From positions 1 to 59,659 of the forward strand of contig JAFVEY010000026.1 in NCBI GenBank assembly GCA_017475765.1: 59,659 nt of DNA, read 5' to 3'. The notes under the pieces were generated by a model. The model was not told the DNA's origin, ran no database searches, and worked only from the letters and a program-made list of their open reading frames with translations. The stretch comes from Clostridia bacterium (GTDB taxonomy: Bacteria; Bacillota; Clostridia; Oscillospirales; Acutalibacteraceae). Positions 23,197-55,160 of this stretch are shown one piece after another. The translations under genes and the position numbers were made by a program. Numbering within the stretch: the stretch's first letter is position 1; each line of letters opens with the position of its first letter.

Positions 23197-23240
23197 AAAA
23201 ACGGTTGAAAACTCTGTTTTGTGTTTTCAACCGTTTTTTA
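23197..23240 (-). terminator. Terminator of serS
   Basis: Stem AAAACGGTTGAAAAC with complement GTTTTCAACCGTTTT around a 10-base loop, with T/A-rich flanks on both strands. Confidence 0.8.
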
Positions 23241-27844: not shown

Positions 27845-27883
27845 TTTTCAACAAGTTTTCAATATCATTGTTGAAAACTTGTT
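27845..27883. repeat. Inverted repeat with TTTTCAACA arms before noc
   Basis: Arms AACAAGTTTTCAA (27850-27862) and TTGAAAACTTGTT (27871-27883). They include 9-mers TTTTCAACA at 27845 and TGTTGAAAA at 27869, the same motif as at the origin. The gap 27741-28038 holds only this repeat and the rsmG terminator. Confidence 0.5.
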
Positions 27884-27972: not shown

Positions 27973-28022
27973 AACACAAGGTTTTCAACGTCTGTTAAAA
28001 ACAATGTTGAAAACCTTGTGTT
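27973..28022 (-). terminator. Terminator of mnmG-rsmG
   Basis: A perfect 17-bp stem, 27973-27989/28006-28022 (AACACAAGGTTTTCAAC arms). The minus-strand tail is TTTTCTTTTT. Confidence 0.85.
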
Positions 28023-28038
28023 GAATCCTGTTGAAATA

Positions 28039-43217: not shown

Positions 43218-43436
43218 TCAATACACCTCTAAGCAGGTATCGTCAAATTGCACCCTGTCTCCATGATGCAGCTTTTTTCCCCGCATCAGGCAGACTTCGC
43301 CGTTCAGGAGGACTTTCCCGCTTTGTATGGCGATTTTTGCCTGTCCTCCGGTTTCCGTACAGCCTGACAGCTTCAGGGCATTATCAAGACGAATAAATTC
43401 TTCACCGGGTTCGAGTGTTATTTTTTCTTTTTTCAT
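43218..43436 (-). CDS. yaaA: S4-domain RNA-binding protein YaaA
   Basis: 72-aa S4 protein conserved between dnaN and recF. The S4 fold reads RLDNALKLSGCTETGGQAKIAIQSGKVLLNGE and then RGKKLHHGDRV. Overlaps dnaN by 4 bases. Probably RNA/ribosome-binding. Confidence 0.92.
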   Translation of the reverse strand: MKKEKITLEPGEEFIRLDNALKLSGCTETGGQAKIAIQSGKVLLNGEVCLMRGKKLHHGDRVQFDDTCLEVY

Positions 43437-44533
43437 TTTGTTAACCTCATCGGCAGAAGTAAAAACAGGAAGCTGTCGCCTTCTGTGGGTGTGATAGTCA
43501 TCGGACTGAGCGCTCCTGTCAGTTTAAGGCAAACCTCGTCAGTTTCGCTGTATCGGAATGCGTCAAGAAGGAATTTATTGTTAAAGCCGATCTCGACATT
43601 TTCTCCTTCCATAATGACTTCCAGCTGATCGTTTGCTCTGCCGAGAGGTGTTTCACATGATGCTTTTATGAGATTATTGTCGATATAGCATCTGATCGGG
43701 CTTTTCATTTTGTCTGTCAGCAGAAGTGACATTCTTTCTATGGTTTTGATAAAGCTGTTTGTTTTTACCCTGAGTGTTGTCATGCAGGCTGTCGGTATTG
43801 AGGTTTTATAGTTCATAAATTCTCCTTCGATCAGTCTGGAAATGATCGAATAGTTTCCGATCCTGAATATGATATGTCTGCCGCTTGCAACTATATCAAT
43901 TGTTTCGGTATTGTCATCTATCAGTTTTGTTACTTCAAGAAGTGATTTTCCCGGAACAATAAAGTTTTTTTCTCCGTCATAGTCCACTTTTTCTGTTCTG
44001 ATGGCAAGTCTGTATCCGTCAACTGAAACAATTCTTATTGTTTTGTCTGCAATTTCAAACAGAGAACCCTTATGTGCGGGTTTGGTATCCTTGTCGGATA
44101 CAGCATAAATGGTCTGTCTGATCATGCTGGCAAGGGTTTCGCCGTCTATTTTGATGGTATCTTCACTTCTGATGATCGGTATTTCCGGATAATCGGATGC
44201 AGGCAGACCTATAATTTTATAATCTGCATTGCCGCTTGAAATATAAACAATATTTTTTTCGTCAACATTAATGCTGATAATATCTTCGGGCATTTTTCTG
44301 ATAATTTCCGAAAACAGCTTGGCAGGTATGACAGCGTTGCCGTTTTCTCTTACAGAAGCCTCAATTGCTGTTGTGATACATATATCAAGATCATAGCCAT
44401 AAAGTGTAATCGTATTGTCAGCTGCCTTGATGAGTATACCTTCAAGAGCGGGTATGGTTGATTTTGAAGATACTGCTCTTTGAACATTTGTAACGGCGTC
44501 TGTGAGTTTTGAGCGGTTACATTCAAATTTCAT
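43433..44533 (-). CDS. dnaN: DNA polymerase III beta clamp
   Basis: 366-aa sliding clamp of three domains. N-terminus MKFECNRSKLTDAVTNVQRAVSSKSTIP; YDLDICI; the last domain ends with the conserved hydrophobic-pocket region SPMTITPTEGDSFLFLLLPMRL. Good AAGGA SD. Its promoter must lie in the origin gap. Confidence 0.97.
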   Translation of the reverse strand: MKFECNRSKLTDAVTNVQRAVSSKSTIPALEGILIKAADNTITLYGYDLDICITTAIEASVRENGNAVIPAKLFSEIIRKMPEDIISINVDEKNIVYISSGNADYKIIGLPASDYPEIPIIRSEDTIKIDGETLASMIRQTIYAVSDKDTKPAHKGSLFEIADKTIRIVSVDGYRLAIRTEKVDYDGEKNFIVPGKSLLEVTKLIDDNTETIDIVASGRHIIFRIGNYSIISRLIEGEFMNYKTSIPTACMTTLRVKTNSFIKTIERMSLLLTDKMKSPIRCYIDNNLIKASCETPLGRANDQLEVIMEGENVEIGFNNKFLLDAFRYSETDEVCLKLTGALSPMTITPTEGDSFLFLLLPMRLTK

Positions 44534-44831
44534 CGGTAATCCTTCCTTTTCCGTAAAAATTAAATAAGAAATAGATATAATTTTAGTAGTAAGAAGTAGG
44601 GGCGGTTGAAAAGTTAAATTCTTCCGTTTTTTCAGACTTCATGCTGAAATCACGTATTTTTTCCTTGTTGAAAGTCTGTTTGAGAAATGTTATGAAATTT
44701 TTGCCCTTTTTTTATTTTTAACTTTGCTGTTGAATCATGTTGGTGAAATGTTGAGTATTTGTTGAAATTCCGAAGCATGAAAAATTTTGTTCTTCAACAG
44801 GAAATGTTGAAATGTTAAAAAGTTATCAACA
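44534..44831. other. oriC: Candidate replication origin (oriC) between dnaA and dnaN
   Basis: 298 bases without a gene. TGTTGAA motifs occur at 44666, 44728, 44760 and 44805, with variants at 44604 (GGTTGAA) and 44749 (TGTTGAG), inverted copies at 44793 and 44825, and TTATCAACA at 44823-44831. Read on the dnaA-to-dnaN strand, TTTTCAACC (44612-44604) is followed by a GC block, then CTACTTCTTACTACTA (44599-44584), then an AT-rich stretch. That order, DnaA-box-like site, GC, DnaA-trio, AT, is the basal unwinding layout described for Bacillus subtilis. The boxes differ from TTATCCACA at two positions, so they are candidates only. Confidence 0.75.
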
Positions 44832-46145
44832 TCATCTGTCCCTGATATTTTTGATAATGTCGTCCACTGTGGATTTCAGCTTCGGGTCCTTTTCCATATT
44901 TTTTTCTATCTGTTTGAGGGCATATACAATGGTGGAGTGGTCTCTTCCGCCGAACTCATCTCCTATGAGGTTCATAGACATTCCTGTGATTTCCCTGACC
45001 GCATATACGGCAATCTGTCTTGCGTTTGAGATGTTGGAATTTCTTTTGGAGGAGCGTATGTCATCGCTTGTCAGTCCGAAATTCCTTGCCACCTCTTCAA
45101 TGATCATTTCCACAGTAAGTGGCGGCGGCTGATCGTTATTGAGGATCTCAGAGATGGTTTTCTGTGCGACATTGATCGTCACCTTATCTCCGTAAAGCTG
45201 GTTTTTAGCTTTGAGCTTTTTGACAACGCCTTCAAGCTGCCTGATATTTGTTTTGAGTCTGGTTGCGATATATTCTATGACATCGTCAGGCAGGTCTATC
45301 TGCAGAAGTTCTGCTTTTCTTCTGATGATGGCGATTCTTGTCTCAAAATCCGGCGGCTGTATATCGGCGATCAGTCCGGATTCAAAACGGCTGCGGAGTC
45401 TGTCCTCCAAAGTTTTGATTTCCTTCGGCGGACGGTCAGATGTCAGCACGATCTGACTTTTTGCTTCATACAGCGTATTGAAGGTATGGAAAAATTCTTC
45501 CTGAGTGGCGTCCTTTCCTCCGATAAACTGGATATCATCGACAAGGAGAACATCGGATTTTCTGTATTTCTGTCTGAATTCGATATTCGATTTTTTCATC
45601 AGGGCTTCGATCAGCTCGTTAGTAAAATCTTCGCCCTTTACATACACGATATCCTTTTCGGGATTGTTTTTGTGTATTTCATTCCTGATGGCATACAGCA
45701 GATGAGTTTTGCCGAGTCCCGAATTTCCGTAAATAAAAAGAGGATTATAGGCTCTTCCGGGATTGGTGGCAACGGCAAGGGAAGCGGCGTGTGCAAATTT
45801 ATTTGACGATCCTACGATAAAGGTGTCGAATGTAAATTCGTAATCCGCATCCACAATACTGTCTGTTATATCCTGTTCTTTTGATATGATCTCATCGGGA
45901 ACTGTAAATACGATCTCTATTCCCTCGCCGAATACGCTTGAAAATGCAGCGTTAAGAAGCTCCATATAGCATCTGATAAGCGTTTGTCGGTGGAAATCAC
46001 CCGGTACCATAAGTATGGCCTTTCCCTCGGCGAAATCCAATTTGATAGGTTCAATTTTACTTATCCACGTTTTATAAGCAACACCTGAAATATGCTGCTT
46101 GCAGTATTCGCAGACAATATCCCAAGCTTCGTTAAATGAATCCAT
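44832..46145 (-). CDS. dnaA: Chromosomal replication initiator DnaA
   Basis: 437-aa AAA+ initiator. Domain I: FNEAWDIVCEYCKQHISGVAYKTWISKI. Domain III: YNPLFIYGNSGLGKTHLL (Walker A), VLLVDDIQFIGGKDATQEEFFHTF (Walker B), LRSRFESGLIADIQPPD (sensor/arginine finger). Domain IV: GRDHSTIVYALKQI, the DNA-binding signature. The start is the ATG at 46145 (MDSFNEAW) behind AGGAG; a longer frame starting MNEVAG has no SD. The promoter is at 46268-46296. Confidence 0.97.
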   Translation of the reverse strand: MDSFNEAWDIVCEYCKQHISGVAYKTWISKIEPIKLDFAEGKAILMVPGDFHRQTLIRCYMELLNAAFSSVFGEGIEIVFTVPDEIISKEQDITDSIVDADYEFTFDTFIVGSSNKFAHAASLAVATNPGRAYNPLFIYGNSGLGKTHLLYAIRNEIHKNNPEKDIVYVKGEDFTNELIEALMKKSNIEFRQKYRKSDVLLVDDIQFIGGKDATQEEFFHTFNTLYEAKSQIVLTSDRPPKEIKTLEDRLRSRFESGLIADIQPPDFETRIAIIRRKAELLQIDLPDDVIEYIATRLKTNIRQLEGVVKKLKAKNQLYGDKVTINVAQKTISEILNNDQPPPLTVEMIIEEVARNFGLTSDDIRSSKRNSNISNARQIAVYAVREITGMSMNLIGDEFGGRDHSTIVYALKQIEKNMEKDPKLKSTVDDIIKNIRDR

Positions 46146-46267
46146 AAACGTAATTTCTCCTATTTCTGTAATATTCCCTGCCGTTTTTCCGGCAACTTCA
46201 TTCAATTTGTTTCATCAATCAAGGCTGTTAAAAATCATTCTGATCAGAAAACACTTATACAAGAATA

Positions 46268-46296
46268 ATTATAACATAATACTTTTTATATTTCAA
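46268..46296 (-). promoter_or_regulatory. Promoter of dnaA
   Basis: Minus strand TTGAAA (46296-46291), 17-bp spacer, TATAAT (46273-46268), 122 bases before the ATG. TTTTCAACA (46321-46329) and GGTTGAAAA (46344-46352) lie just upstream and could be initiator binding sites for autoregulation. Confidence 0.75.
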
Positions 46297-46407
46297 ATAC
46301 TTTTTGCTTTCCTGGATAAATTTTCAACATTTGAAGCGCAGACGGTTGAAAACTTGATATTTTTTTCAAAATTCCGCTTAAATACACAGAAAAATTAAAA
46401 GTTTTAG

Positions 46408-46437
46408 TTGACAGAACTATGATTCATAGGTTATAAT
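46408..46437 (+). promoter_or_regulatory. Promoter of rpmH-rnpA operon
   Basis: TTGACA at 46408-46413, 18-bp spacer, TATAAT at 46432-46437, 71 bases before rpmH. Confidence 0.8.
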
Positions 46438-49375: not shown

Positions 49376-49447
49376 TAAGCATATTCCATTTTATAAAGTT
49401 TTCAACATTAAAATAAAAAATGTTGAAAAGTGATTGGAGATAGGATG

Positions 49448-53225: not shown

Positions 53226-55160
53226 ATGAAAAAAACACCAAAAATTCTTGGCGTTACTTTGACAGCTGCTATGATTTCTTCAATCGCAGCAACAGCTGCT
53301 ATTACTGCTCAGGCATCTGCTATTGCTTCAAGAGATGAACTGGCTGGGCACTCAGTTGGTATCGTAGGTTCTTTCAACGGTTGGGGTACAACCGGTTCTG
53401 ATGTTGTTATGACAGGCAACAACGGTGTCTATACAGGTACTGTTCAGATCGACAGCGTTACTGATGATATGATCAGCGAGCTTGAAAGCGACGGCACAAA
53501 GACAGGTAAGTATGGTCTCCAGTTCAAGATTCGTCTTGATGAAAGCTGGGACAGCAACTGGGGTGATTATGAAGAGGATGTTGAGCGTACAGACAACAGC
53601 CAGACAAACCTTCTTATTCCAAAGGAGGATATCACAATAGGTGAACCGCTTGCATTTGTTGTAACATTCGATACAACAAAAGTTCATCCGGATGCGGATC
53701 AGGACAATGATCCTAGTGATCCTACTTTATGGCCTGTCAGCTATGAGCTGATTGATCTGAGTCTGGATTACAAAGACAATGATGATGGAACAATCACACT
53801 TACGGGTTTCAAATCTGCGTATGCAGCACAATATTATGCGCAAAACAACGACGTATTTGTTTTTCCTGATACTGTTGACGGAAAAACTGTTACTAAGATA
53901 GGATATGTCAATGATCTGAGCGGGGTGGATTTCGCTTCTCTTGGTTGGAATGAGGAATCTGACAGAAGTTTCCGAGTTCTACGACAGATACAGCTTCCTG
54001 ATACTATTAAGGAGATAGATGACGGTGCATTTTTCCGCCCGAAATTTGTTGACGATAAGCTCCCCGAAGGATTGGAAAGAATCGGCAGAGGTGCTATAAC
54101 ACATATTGTTGTTGATGGAAAGCTGGTTATGCCGTCTACCCTCAAATACATTGGTGAATCTGCTTTCTATGAATCAAATTTCTCTGGATCAAACATAGAT
54201 GAGATCGTTTTGAATGAAGGACTTGAATATATCGGAGCCGAGGCATTTTTATTTGCCAGCAAATCTCCGAAGGAAATAACTATTCCAAAAAGTGTAAAAT
54301 ATATTGGTTGGGATGCCTTCGGAACATGGGCATGGACGGAATCCGGCGATGTAGTTCAAAGAGATTGCCACTTCAGCATCTATGGCGGCGGTTATGTTGA
54401 AAGTTATATCAGCACCTATCAGCCATTCCATACAGAAACCGCACCCAAGGGATATAACTACACCATTATCGGTCAGATAGACCCCGAACCCTCACAGACA
54501 GAGGAAGAAAACGGACTGTCTGTCAGCGGTGCAATTCCGGAGGGTGCTGTGTTTAAGGCAGTTGCCACAACTACAAAATGGCTGGAAAATCCACTTTTCT
54601 GTTATGAGATCACACTCAACAAGGGCGATGAAACCGTTCAGCCTGACGGCTATATTACCATCTCTATCCCCTGCGAATACGGCAACGGCTATGTTGTTTA
54701 CATTGATGAAGAGACAGGCAAAATGGAAAACCTTAATTCCATCTATGTGGACGGAAAATATGTTTTCGTAACGGATCATCTTTCAGAGTACGGCATTAAA
54801 TTTGATGAAGAACCTGTAAAGTATGATGATAGCGGCAAAAAGGATGATACGAAAGAGGGCGGCTCTGAAACAGATAACACCAAAACAGATGACACTCAGC
54901 CGGATAACACCCAAACAGAAAATACTAAGTCAGATAATACTAAGACAGACAACACTAAGACAAATAATTCTCAGACGGTTAACACTCAGCCGGATAATAC
55001 TAAGACAGATAACACTCAGACAGACGGCAATCCGTCTGCTATTGACACAACCTCTCCCAGTACCGGAGATAATCCGTTTGTAGTATTCAGTCTTGTTCTG
55101 ATGGCATCAATTGCCGCTTTGTCTGCGGTTGTTCTCGGACGCAAAAGAAAAACAAATTAA
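53226..55160 (+). CDS. Secreted surface protein: carbohydrate-binding-like N-domain, LRR_5 repeats, Thr/Asp repeat stalk, sortase-type end
   Basis: 644 aa. Signal peptide (KKTPKILGVTLTAAMISSIAATAAITAQASA). Residues about 40-160 (VGIVGSFNGWGTTGSDVVM, YTGTVQI, WDSNWGDYE) resemble CBM48/starch-binding immunoglobulin-like modules. Residues about 245-395 contain BspA-like leucine-rich repeats (LPDTIKEIDDGAF, LPEGLERIGRGA, MPSTLKYIGESAF, LNEGLEYIGAEAF, IPKSVKYIGWDAF). After a further domain, a TDNTKTDNTQ-type repeat (about 545-605) forms a stalk. The end SPSTGDNPF, hydrophobic helix, GRKRKTN is a sortase-type sorting signal with SPSTG in place of LPXTG. It is probably a cell-wall adhesin for glucan. 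Its expression seems controlled by the divergent XRE. Confidence 0.85.
   Translation: MKKTPKILGVTLTAAMISSIAATAAITAQASAIASRDELAGHSVGIVGSFNGWGTTGSDVVMTGNNGVYTGTVQIDSVTDDMISELESDGTKTGKYGLQFKIRLDESWDSNWGDYEEDVERTDNSQTNLLIPKEDITIGEPLAFVVTFDTTKVHPDADQDNDPSDPTLWPVSYELIDLSLDYKDNDDGTITLTGFKSAYAAQYYAQNNDVFVFPDTVDGKTVTKIGYVNDLSGVDFASLGWNEESDRSFRVLRQIQLPDTIKEIDDGAFFRPKFVDDKLPEGLERIGRGAITHIVVDGKLVMPSTLKYIGESAFYESNFSGSNIDEIVLNEGLEYIGAEAFLFASKSPKEITIPKSVKYIGWDAFGTWAWTESGDVVQRDCHFSIYGGGYVESYISTYQPFHTETAPKGYNYTIIGQIDPEPSQTEEENGLSVSGAIPEGAVFKAVATTTKWLENPLFCYEITLNKGDETVQPDGYITISIPCEYGNGYVVYIDEETGKMENLNSIYVDGKYVFVTDHLSEYGIKFDEEPVKYDDSGKKDDTKEGGSETDNTKTDDTQPDNTQTENTKSDNTKTDNTKTNNSQTVNTQPDNTKTDNTQTDGNPSAIDTTSPSTGDNPFVVFSLVLMASIAALSAVVLGRKRKTN
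54862..55035 (+). repeat. Coding repeat (about 15-base unit) in the LRR protein stalk
   Basis: Repeated units like ACAGATAACACT with AAG or CAG ends encode TDNTK/TDNTQ. Because of the repeat, false open frames appear in other frames. Unit number may vary between strains. Confidence 0.8.

What the first reader, a model, noticed from the sequence alone, without database searches (positions are those of the whole stretch)
44534..44831. Origin with DnaA-trio-like element and non-canonical boxes
Box, GC block, CTACTTCTTACTACTA and AT tract follow in the order of the Bacillus basal unwinding system, but the boxes are TTTTCAACC/TTCAACA instead of TTATCCACA. It may be a divergent initiator-recognition code.
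Basis: partly seen in the sequence, partly recalled or inferred. Interest (0 to 1): 0.75.

Follow-up and report, generated by a model that had tools for sequence, protein, structure and literature searches.

The report
Replication origin with altered DnaA boxes
This is the chromosome replication start site of a gut Clostridia bacterium; it has the usual Bacillus-like opening element, but the short DNA words that the starter protein DnaA should read differ from the textbook word across much of this bacterial family, whose DnaA also differs at residues that touch those bases.

Summary
The dnaA-dnaN gap (44534-44831, minus strand) holds TTTTCAACC, GCCC, CTACTTCTTACTACTA and an AT tract in the order of the Bacillus basal unwinding system (BUS), plus five TTCAACA repeats and no TTATCCACA. 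GC skew and gene strands switch here; in a one-contig relative the skew flips at dnaA. The BUS is ordinary: strong trios occur in 100 of 238 dnaA-dnaN gaps (0.4 expected). The boxes are less so. In 51 more distant loci the enriched word is TTATCCACA; in the window's family it is TTTTC(A/C)ACA. Three of six base-contact residues of DnaA domain IV differ in the window (P423N, T435S, H439Y). Across 263 loci, A at box position 6 rises from 17% with T435 to 53% with S435 and 89% with A435. In S435/Y439 genomes the A/C choice follows GC content; in T435/H439 genomes it does not. Corrected for phylogeny, the residue link is not significant (p 0.05 to 0.6, by test). Best reading: a normal BUS origin with a shifted, partly relaxed DnaA-box code, a new variant of a known kind. 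No binding was tested.

The parts
44832..46145 (-). dnaA (437 aa from the ATG at 46145; a TTG start at 46205 is possible)
   Evidence: Pfam Bac_DnaA 1e-69, Bac_DnaA_C 7e-26, DnaA_N 3.5e-8; domain IV signature GGRDHSTIVYA
43433..44533 (-). dnaN, sliding clamp
   Evidence: Pfam DNA_pol3_beta N, central and C domains
44534..44831 (-). dnaA-dnaN gap: oriC part with the unwinding element and box cluster
44604..44612 (-). trio-proximal DnaA box TTTTCAACC (place of BUS box 7)
   Evidence: 8 of 9 match to TTWTCMACA; it starts 13 bp before CTACTTCTTACTACTA as read on the sequence (one search prints -17 because its score picks the trio 4 bp further on)
44612..44620 (-). place of BUS box 6 (21 bp before the trio): AATTTAACT, a poor match here; the main box in most relatives
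   Evidence: read; boxes start 21-22 bp before the trio in 55 of 77 S435/Y439 and 37 of 46 T435/H439 loci that have a box
44600..44603 (-). GCCC block
   Evidence: a CCC-like block stands at the same place in most of the relatives printed
44584..44599 (-). DnaA-trio element CTACTTCTTACTACTA
   Evidence: only copy in the window; trio score >=22 in 100 of 238 gaps against 0.4 expected. The window's own score is 18, reached by 187 of 238 gaps and by 42 of 238 shuffled ones
44556..44583 (-). AT-rich tract, presumed unwinding region
   Evidence: sequence
44666..44674 (-). DnaA-box-like CTTTCAACA
44728..44734 (-). TTCAACA repeat
44760..44768 (-). DnaA-box-like ATTTCAACA
44791..44799 (+). DnaA-box-like TCTTCAACA
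44805..44813 (-). DnaA-box-like ATTTCAACA
44823..44831 (+). DnaA box TTATCAACA
46321..46352 (.). inverted box pair upstream of dnaA: TTTTCAACA on plus, TTTTCAACC on minus; 24 bp upstream of the promoter
   Evidence: in L001 TGTTGAAAA and in L085 TGTGGAAAA (TTTTCCACA) stand directly before the presumed -35 (by eye)
46268..46296 (-). dnaA promoter TTGAAA-17-TATAAT
   Evidence: 11 of 12 matches with TG before the second hexamer
49399..49429 (.). inverted box pair TTTTCAACA-N13-TGTTGAAAA upstream of mnmE
   Evidence: L004 has GTTTTCAACA and GGTTGAAAG there, and L049, L054 and L075 (Viridibacillus, Lysinibacillus) have TTATCCACATGTGGATAA; seven other near relatives have no such pair

Best explanation
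This is the chromosomal oriC. DnaA binds box clusters on both sides of dnaA. From the trio-proximal box it loads through the GCCC block onto the DnaA-trio strand and melts the AT tract, as in the Bacillus BUS. In this family DnaA reads TTTTC(A/C)ACA instead of TTATCCACA, because domain IV has lost P423, T435 and H439. The contact at position 6 now tolerates either amino base (A or C), so the letter drifts with genome GC content; position 3 has moved from A to T. Shown: anatomy, family-wide box words, residue changes, their raw association, skew. Inferred: binding, use of both box clusters, unwinding, and that the residue changes cause the box shift.
For: Gene order, strand switch and skew (G054). 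Trio >=22 in 100 of 238 gaps against 0.4 expected, with boxes at a fixed distance. Unbiased 8-mers: TATCCACA 242 copies in 46 of 51 distant loci; TTTTCAAC 23 in 7 of 7 nearest loci; TTTCAACA 62 in 23 of 27 loci at 65-79% DnaA identity. The word also differs at the dnaA promoter and, in the window and L004, upstream of mnmE. Window DnaA has R, N, D, H, S, Y at positions R399, P423, D433, H434, T435, H439 (list from a passage of PMC7561715; alignment to 1j1v and 8btg, which I recall as E. coli and B. subtilis). A6 share: T435 59/339, S435 174/327, A435 16/18. G or T at position 6 is rare (16, against 327 A or C, in S435 loci), which simple AT-ward decay would not give. A6 share falls with GC3 in S435/Y439 loci (rho -0.44, p 5e-5, n=78) and not in T435/H439 loci (rho 0.02, n=56).
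Against: No binding or unwinding data. With phylogeny taken into account the residue link is not significant: independent pairs 2.3 same way, 0.7 opposite, 8.1 no difference, of 11, median p 0.63; contrasts p=0.10 for A6 on residue 435; families as units p=0.054. TTATCAACA is found at the BUS of T435/H439 loci (6 of 46). GC-rich T435/H439 genomes also use T3 (61% at GC3 above 0.65), and there the A6 difference is small (25 of 75 against 8 of 41). Agreement of the A/C letter up and down of dnaA within a genome is weak (rho 0.29, p 0.14, n=26). T435 persists in 21 of 124 f1 loci; loci without P423 but with T435 and Y439 have A6 in 11 of 29 words. f2 runs the other way (mostly T435, A6 2 of 3); f3, f7 and f26 are mainly C6 with S435 present. 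TTTTCCACA is also above its control in the window's genome (68 against 31).
Confidence: 0.72

Rival explanations
1. Ordinary BUS origin whose boxes are low-affinity variants of the canonical code; DnaA specificity is unchanged and still prefers TTATCCACA, the strong boxes having been lost.
For: R399, D433 and H434 are kept. TTATCAACA occurs at BUS sites of T435/H439 loci. The DnaA chain 3pvp (Mycobacterium tuberculosis, as I recall) also has Tyr at 439, while the M. tuberculosis box keeps C6 (YWRTCCACA, passage of PMC5043019).
Against: TTATCCACA is not among the top origin words of the family and is near its reversed-pattern control in the window's genome (32 against 17; TTTTCAACA 126 against 20). 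The pair upstream of mnmE has the new word too. Low-affinity decay should also give G and T at position 6, and these are rare.
Confidence: 0.2
2. Composition drift alone: AT-rich genomes turn C into A in boxes that stay under weak selection, without a protein change.
For: A6 share follows GC3 in the S435/Y439 loci.
Against: Equally AT-rich T435/H439 genomes keep C6: 108 C against 27 A at GC3 below 0.35. The usual C-to-T route is not seen.
Confidence: 0.12
3. The TTCAACA repeats are sites of another regulator, or hairpins, and not DnaA boxes.
For: Some TTTTCAAC pairs elsewhere in the window (23203-23232, 27982-28013) lie in palindromes that look like terminators by eye.
Against: Words of this form sit at the fixed BUS box positions in most loci with a box, at the dnaA promoter and upstream of mnmE, where other lineages have TTATCCACA-type words.
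Confidence: 0.05

Closest known systems
Bacillus subtilis basal unwinding system (BUS; passages of PMC8287927 read)
   Same: dnaA-dnaN gap, box next to a GC block, DnaA-trio repeats, AT tract; boxes also upstream of dnaA
   Different: boxes TTTTCAACC/TTCAACA instead of TTATCCACA; the trio-proximal box is the better one; DnaA contact residues N423, S435, Y439
Clostridioides difficile oriC1/oriC2 (passages of PMC7561715 read)
   Same: bipartite layout, trio in oriC2, DnaA-dependent unwinding shown there
   Different: C. difficile DnaA keeps all six contact residues; boxes were sought with TTWTNCACA
Epsilonproteobacterial DnaA-box code, core TTCAC (passages of PMC5043019 read)
   Different: there position 5 is fixed as T; here position 6 is A or C and position 3 is T
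Thermotoga maritima 12-bp DnaA motif (stated in a passage of PMC7561715)
   Same: divergent box together with divergent contact residues
   Different: an extended 12-bp word; here the 9-mer frame is kept

Membership tests
BUS-type oriC | DnaA box within 16 bp of the trio (criterion read in PMC8287927) | tested here: met
   TTTTCAACC ends 4 bp before CTACTTCTTACTACTA; it has 3 mismatches to TTATCCACA, so that paper's default rule (at most 2) would miss it unless a species box were given
BUS-type oriC | at least three trios with a middle A on the bound strand | tested here: met
   CTACTTCTTACTACTA on the minus strand, with one phase slip
BUS-type oriC | DnaA- and trio-dependent strand opening | not testable with these tools
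   needs a strand-separation assay
Bacterial oriC | GC-skew switch at the locus | tested here: met
   locally in the window; over the chromosome only in the one-contig relative G054
Canonical DnaA box code TTWTNCACA | C at position 6 | tested here: not met
   0 matches to TTWTNCACA in the 298 bp gap
Canonical DnaA domain IV | R399, P423, D433, H434, T435, H439 | tested here: not met
   R, N, D, H, S, Y: three of six differ

The most novel reading that the evidence does not exclude
In the order of the window the DnaA recognition code has been rewritten several times. Residue 435 acts as a graded selector of box position 6 (T reads C, S reads A or C, A reads A), and lineages with H or T at 433 read other words such as TTATGCACA. 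This would be a natural series of initiator-origin co-evolution.
Probability: 0.33. Interest if true: 0.72.

Novelty: new variant of a known kind. Interest (0 to 1): 0.5.

Why it matters
The DnaA box is usually treated as nearly fixed, and by default oriC searches use TTATCCACA-like words. A gut-bacterial family with TTTTC(A/C)ACA boxes and altered contact residues would be mis-scored by such searches. It also offers a ready series of natural DnaA variants for testing how an essential initiator and its many sites change together.

Tried and rejected
Inverted TTTTCAAC pairs at 23203-23232 and 27982-28013 were first taken as distant DnaA boxes. By eye they are palindromes with T-rich stretches after them, although the consensus terminator scan did not list them; I left them out of the parts.

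Genome-wide counts use a reversed pattern as control, which does not allow for codon use; I give them little weight.

A concerted A/C letter within genomes (up against down of dnaA) was tested and not supported (rho 0.29, p 0.14; n=26 of 153 loci had enough boxes).

Residues 423 and 439 as causes of A6: no signal in contrasts (p 0.89 and 0.93). Independent pairs for residue 439: A6 0.8 same way against 0.4 opposite of 8; T3 1.9 against 0.0 of 7; for low GC3: A6 4.1 against 3.0, T3 0.2 against 3.1, of 13; none significant (part of that output was cut).

Rows dropped before counts: of 150 family genomes 5 had no DnaA match and 15 partial or low-ranked ones were not fetched, leaving 130, one of which (L081) is the window's own locus. 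At order level 182 of 197 genomes matched; I chose 60 outside f1 by hand for spread over families, from a list that was cut. 271 rows became 263 after removing identical C-termini; 25 of 263 had no usable dnaN in reach. Loci with fewer than 2 scored boxes, or a tie, were left out of the pair tests (146 and 147 of 263 scored). The genome-contig search kept the best 80 of at least 592 relatives.

Literature: searches (43 papers hold 'DnaA-trio', 30 listed) showed no report of TTTTCAACA boxes or of DnaA boxes of this order. One search listed three oriC-finder papers that hold 'species-specific DnaA box' but not TTTTCAACA; I saw them in the listing only. Only open-licence papers are searched, so this is weak. 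Fujikawa 2003 was not held, so which base residue 435 touches was not read.

Full report
What is there. The finding covers exactly the gap between dnaA and dnaN, both on the minus strand. Reading along the genes, the gap holds a TTCAACA-rich stretch, then TTTTCAACC, GCCC, CTACTTCTTACTACTA and an AT tract. The trio word is unique in the window, and five TTCAACA in 298 bp is far above shuffles (mean 0.19, maximum 3 of 2,000). There is no TTATCCACA and no TTWTNCACA in the gap.

It is the origin. The window runs gyrB-...-recF-dnaN-dnaA on minus and rpmH-...-yidC-...-mnmE on plus (rpmH read by eye; recF named from its RecF/SMC-type Pfam match and its place). Cumulative GC skew is lowest at about 42-44 kb. 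The genome itself is in 81 contigs. In relative G054, one contig of 2.34 Mb, 20 stretches show one minus-to-plus change, at dnaA, and one change back, between 1.80 and 1.99 Mb.

The unwinding element is ordinary. I collected 271 dnaA rows: 80 loci from genome contigs, 130 from the window's family f1 (one is the window's own), 60 from other families of the order and the window; 263 are distinct. Trios with score 22 or more stand in 100 of 238 gaps with dnaN in reach, against 0.4 expected from shuffles. At the lower score of 18, which is the window's, it is 187 of 238 gaps and 42 of 238 shuffled gaps; the window's trio has one phase slip. Boxes start 21-22 bp before the trio in 37 of 46 T435/H439 and 55 of 77 S435/Y439 loci that have a box (50 and 98 loci with a trio were looked at). 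In the window the better box is the trio-proximal one.

The box word is shifted across the family. Without any prior motif, the enriched 8-mers beside dnaA are TATCCACA/TTATCCAC in 51 more distant loci, and, besides trio words, TTTCAACA, TTTTCAAC, TTTTCCAC and TTTCCACA in the family and its nearest relatives. At position 3, A is 75% in the distant set and T is 75% in the set of 153 family and near-family loci; at position 6, C is 66% and A 19% in the distant set, against A 52% and C 35% in the family set. The new word is also seen at the dnaA promoter and at mnmE: three loci (L049, L054, L075) carry TTATCCACATGTGGATAA upstream of mnmE, and the window carries TTTTCAACA-N13-TGTTGAAAA. Of eight near relatives whose mnmE start lay in reach, L004 has a similar pair; L006, L007, L011, L012, L013, L014 and L018 do not, so this third site is not a family-wide feature.

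DnaA is altered where it touches the box. Base-contact positions, as listed in PMC7561715 (passage read), are R399, P423, D433, H434, T435, H439. The window has R, N, D, H, S, Y (alignment to 1j1v and 8btg). PMC5742627 (passage read) says that helix 434-451 reads TnCACA in the major groove, that Arg399 reads TTA in the minor groove, and that T435M and R399A are defective in box binding.

Residue and box go together, with limits. Over TTWTC(A/C)ACA words, the A6 share is 59/339 with T435, 174/327 with S435 and 16/18 with A435; the T3 share is 0.22 with H439 and 0.88 with Y439. At GC3 below 0.35, S435/Y439 loci have 45 A to 13 C, and T435/H439 loci 27 A to 108 C; above 0.65 it is 25 to 50 and 8 to 33. 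Within S435/Y439 loci the A share falls with GC3 (rho -0.44, p 5e-5, n=78); within T435/H439 loci there is no trend (rho 0.02, n=56). This is what a site would do if A and C had become equivalent to the protein. But the residues are clustered on the tree. Independent pairs are few and not significant. Contrasts give p=0.10 for A6 on residue 435, 0.93 on 439, 0.89 on 423, 0.077 on GC3, and p=0.037 for T3 on residue 435 (0.11 with the other terms). Families as units give p=0.054. Causation is therefore inferred, not shown.

Known or new. The BUS and its spread are known (PMC8287927, passages read: 1,755 of 2,070 origins). Clade-specific boxes with changed DnaA motifs are known in Epsilonproteobacteria (PMC5043019, passages read). 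I found no report for this order. I rate it a new variant of a known kind.

Noticed in passing
window 49399-49429: Inverted DnaA-box-like pair upstream of mnmE; L049, L054 and L075 have TTATCCACATGTGGATAA upstream of their mnmE, hinting at DnaA control of mnmE in some lineages.
   Followed up: partly
window 27845-27877 and 27982-28037: Second cluster of TTTTCAACA/TTCAACA words, partly in long palindromes, in an intergenic stretch 16 kb from oriC; it could be an operator, a terminator or distal boxes.
   Followed up: partly
window 23203-23232: Palindrome GGTTGAAAAC...GTTTTCAACC followed by a T run on the minus strand; terminator-like by eye, not listed by the scan.
   Followed up: no
L072 and L219: dnaA-dnaN gaps with TTATGCAC-type words, DnaA with T or H at 433 and P423 kept: a possible second code change (word in 2 of 5 loci of this group; 3 of the 5 had no usable dnaA-dnaN gap).
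   Followed up: partly
many loci of the order: The DnaA signature is very variable in this order: HYS, NYS, HHS, HYT and NHA forms, one-residue shortening (FGRDHST), and K, Q or H in place of R399 in 26, 20 and 8 of 263 loci.
   Followed up: partly
window 44720-44755 (minus strand), L001-L005: Variants of a block like TTCACCAACANNNTTCAAC recur in the dnaA-dnaN gap of the nearest relatives (by eye); meaning unknown.
   Followed up: no
window 46408-46437: Perfect TTGACA-18-TATAAT promoter-like site facing rpmH, divergent from the dnaA promoter.
   Followed up: no
window 53226-55160: Protein with BspA-type leucine-rich repeats (Pfam LRR_5).
   Followed up: no
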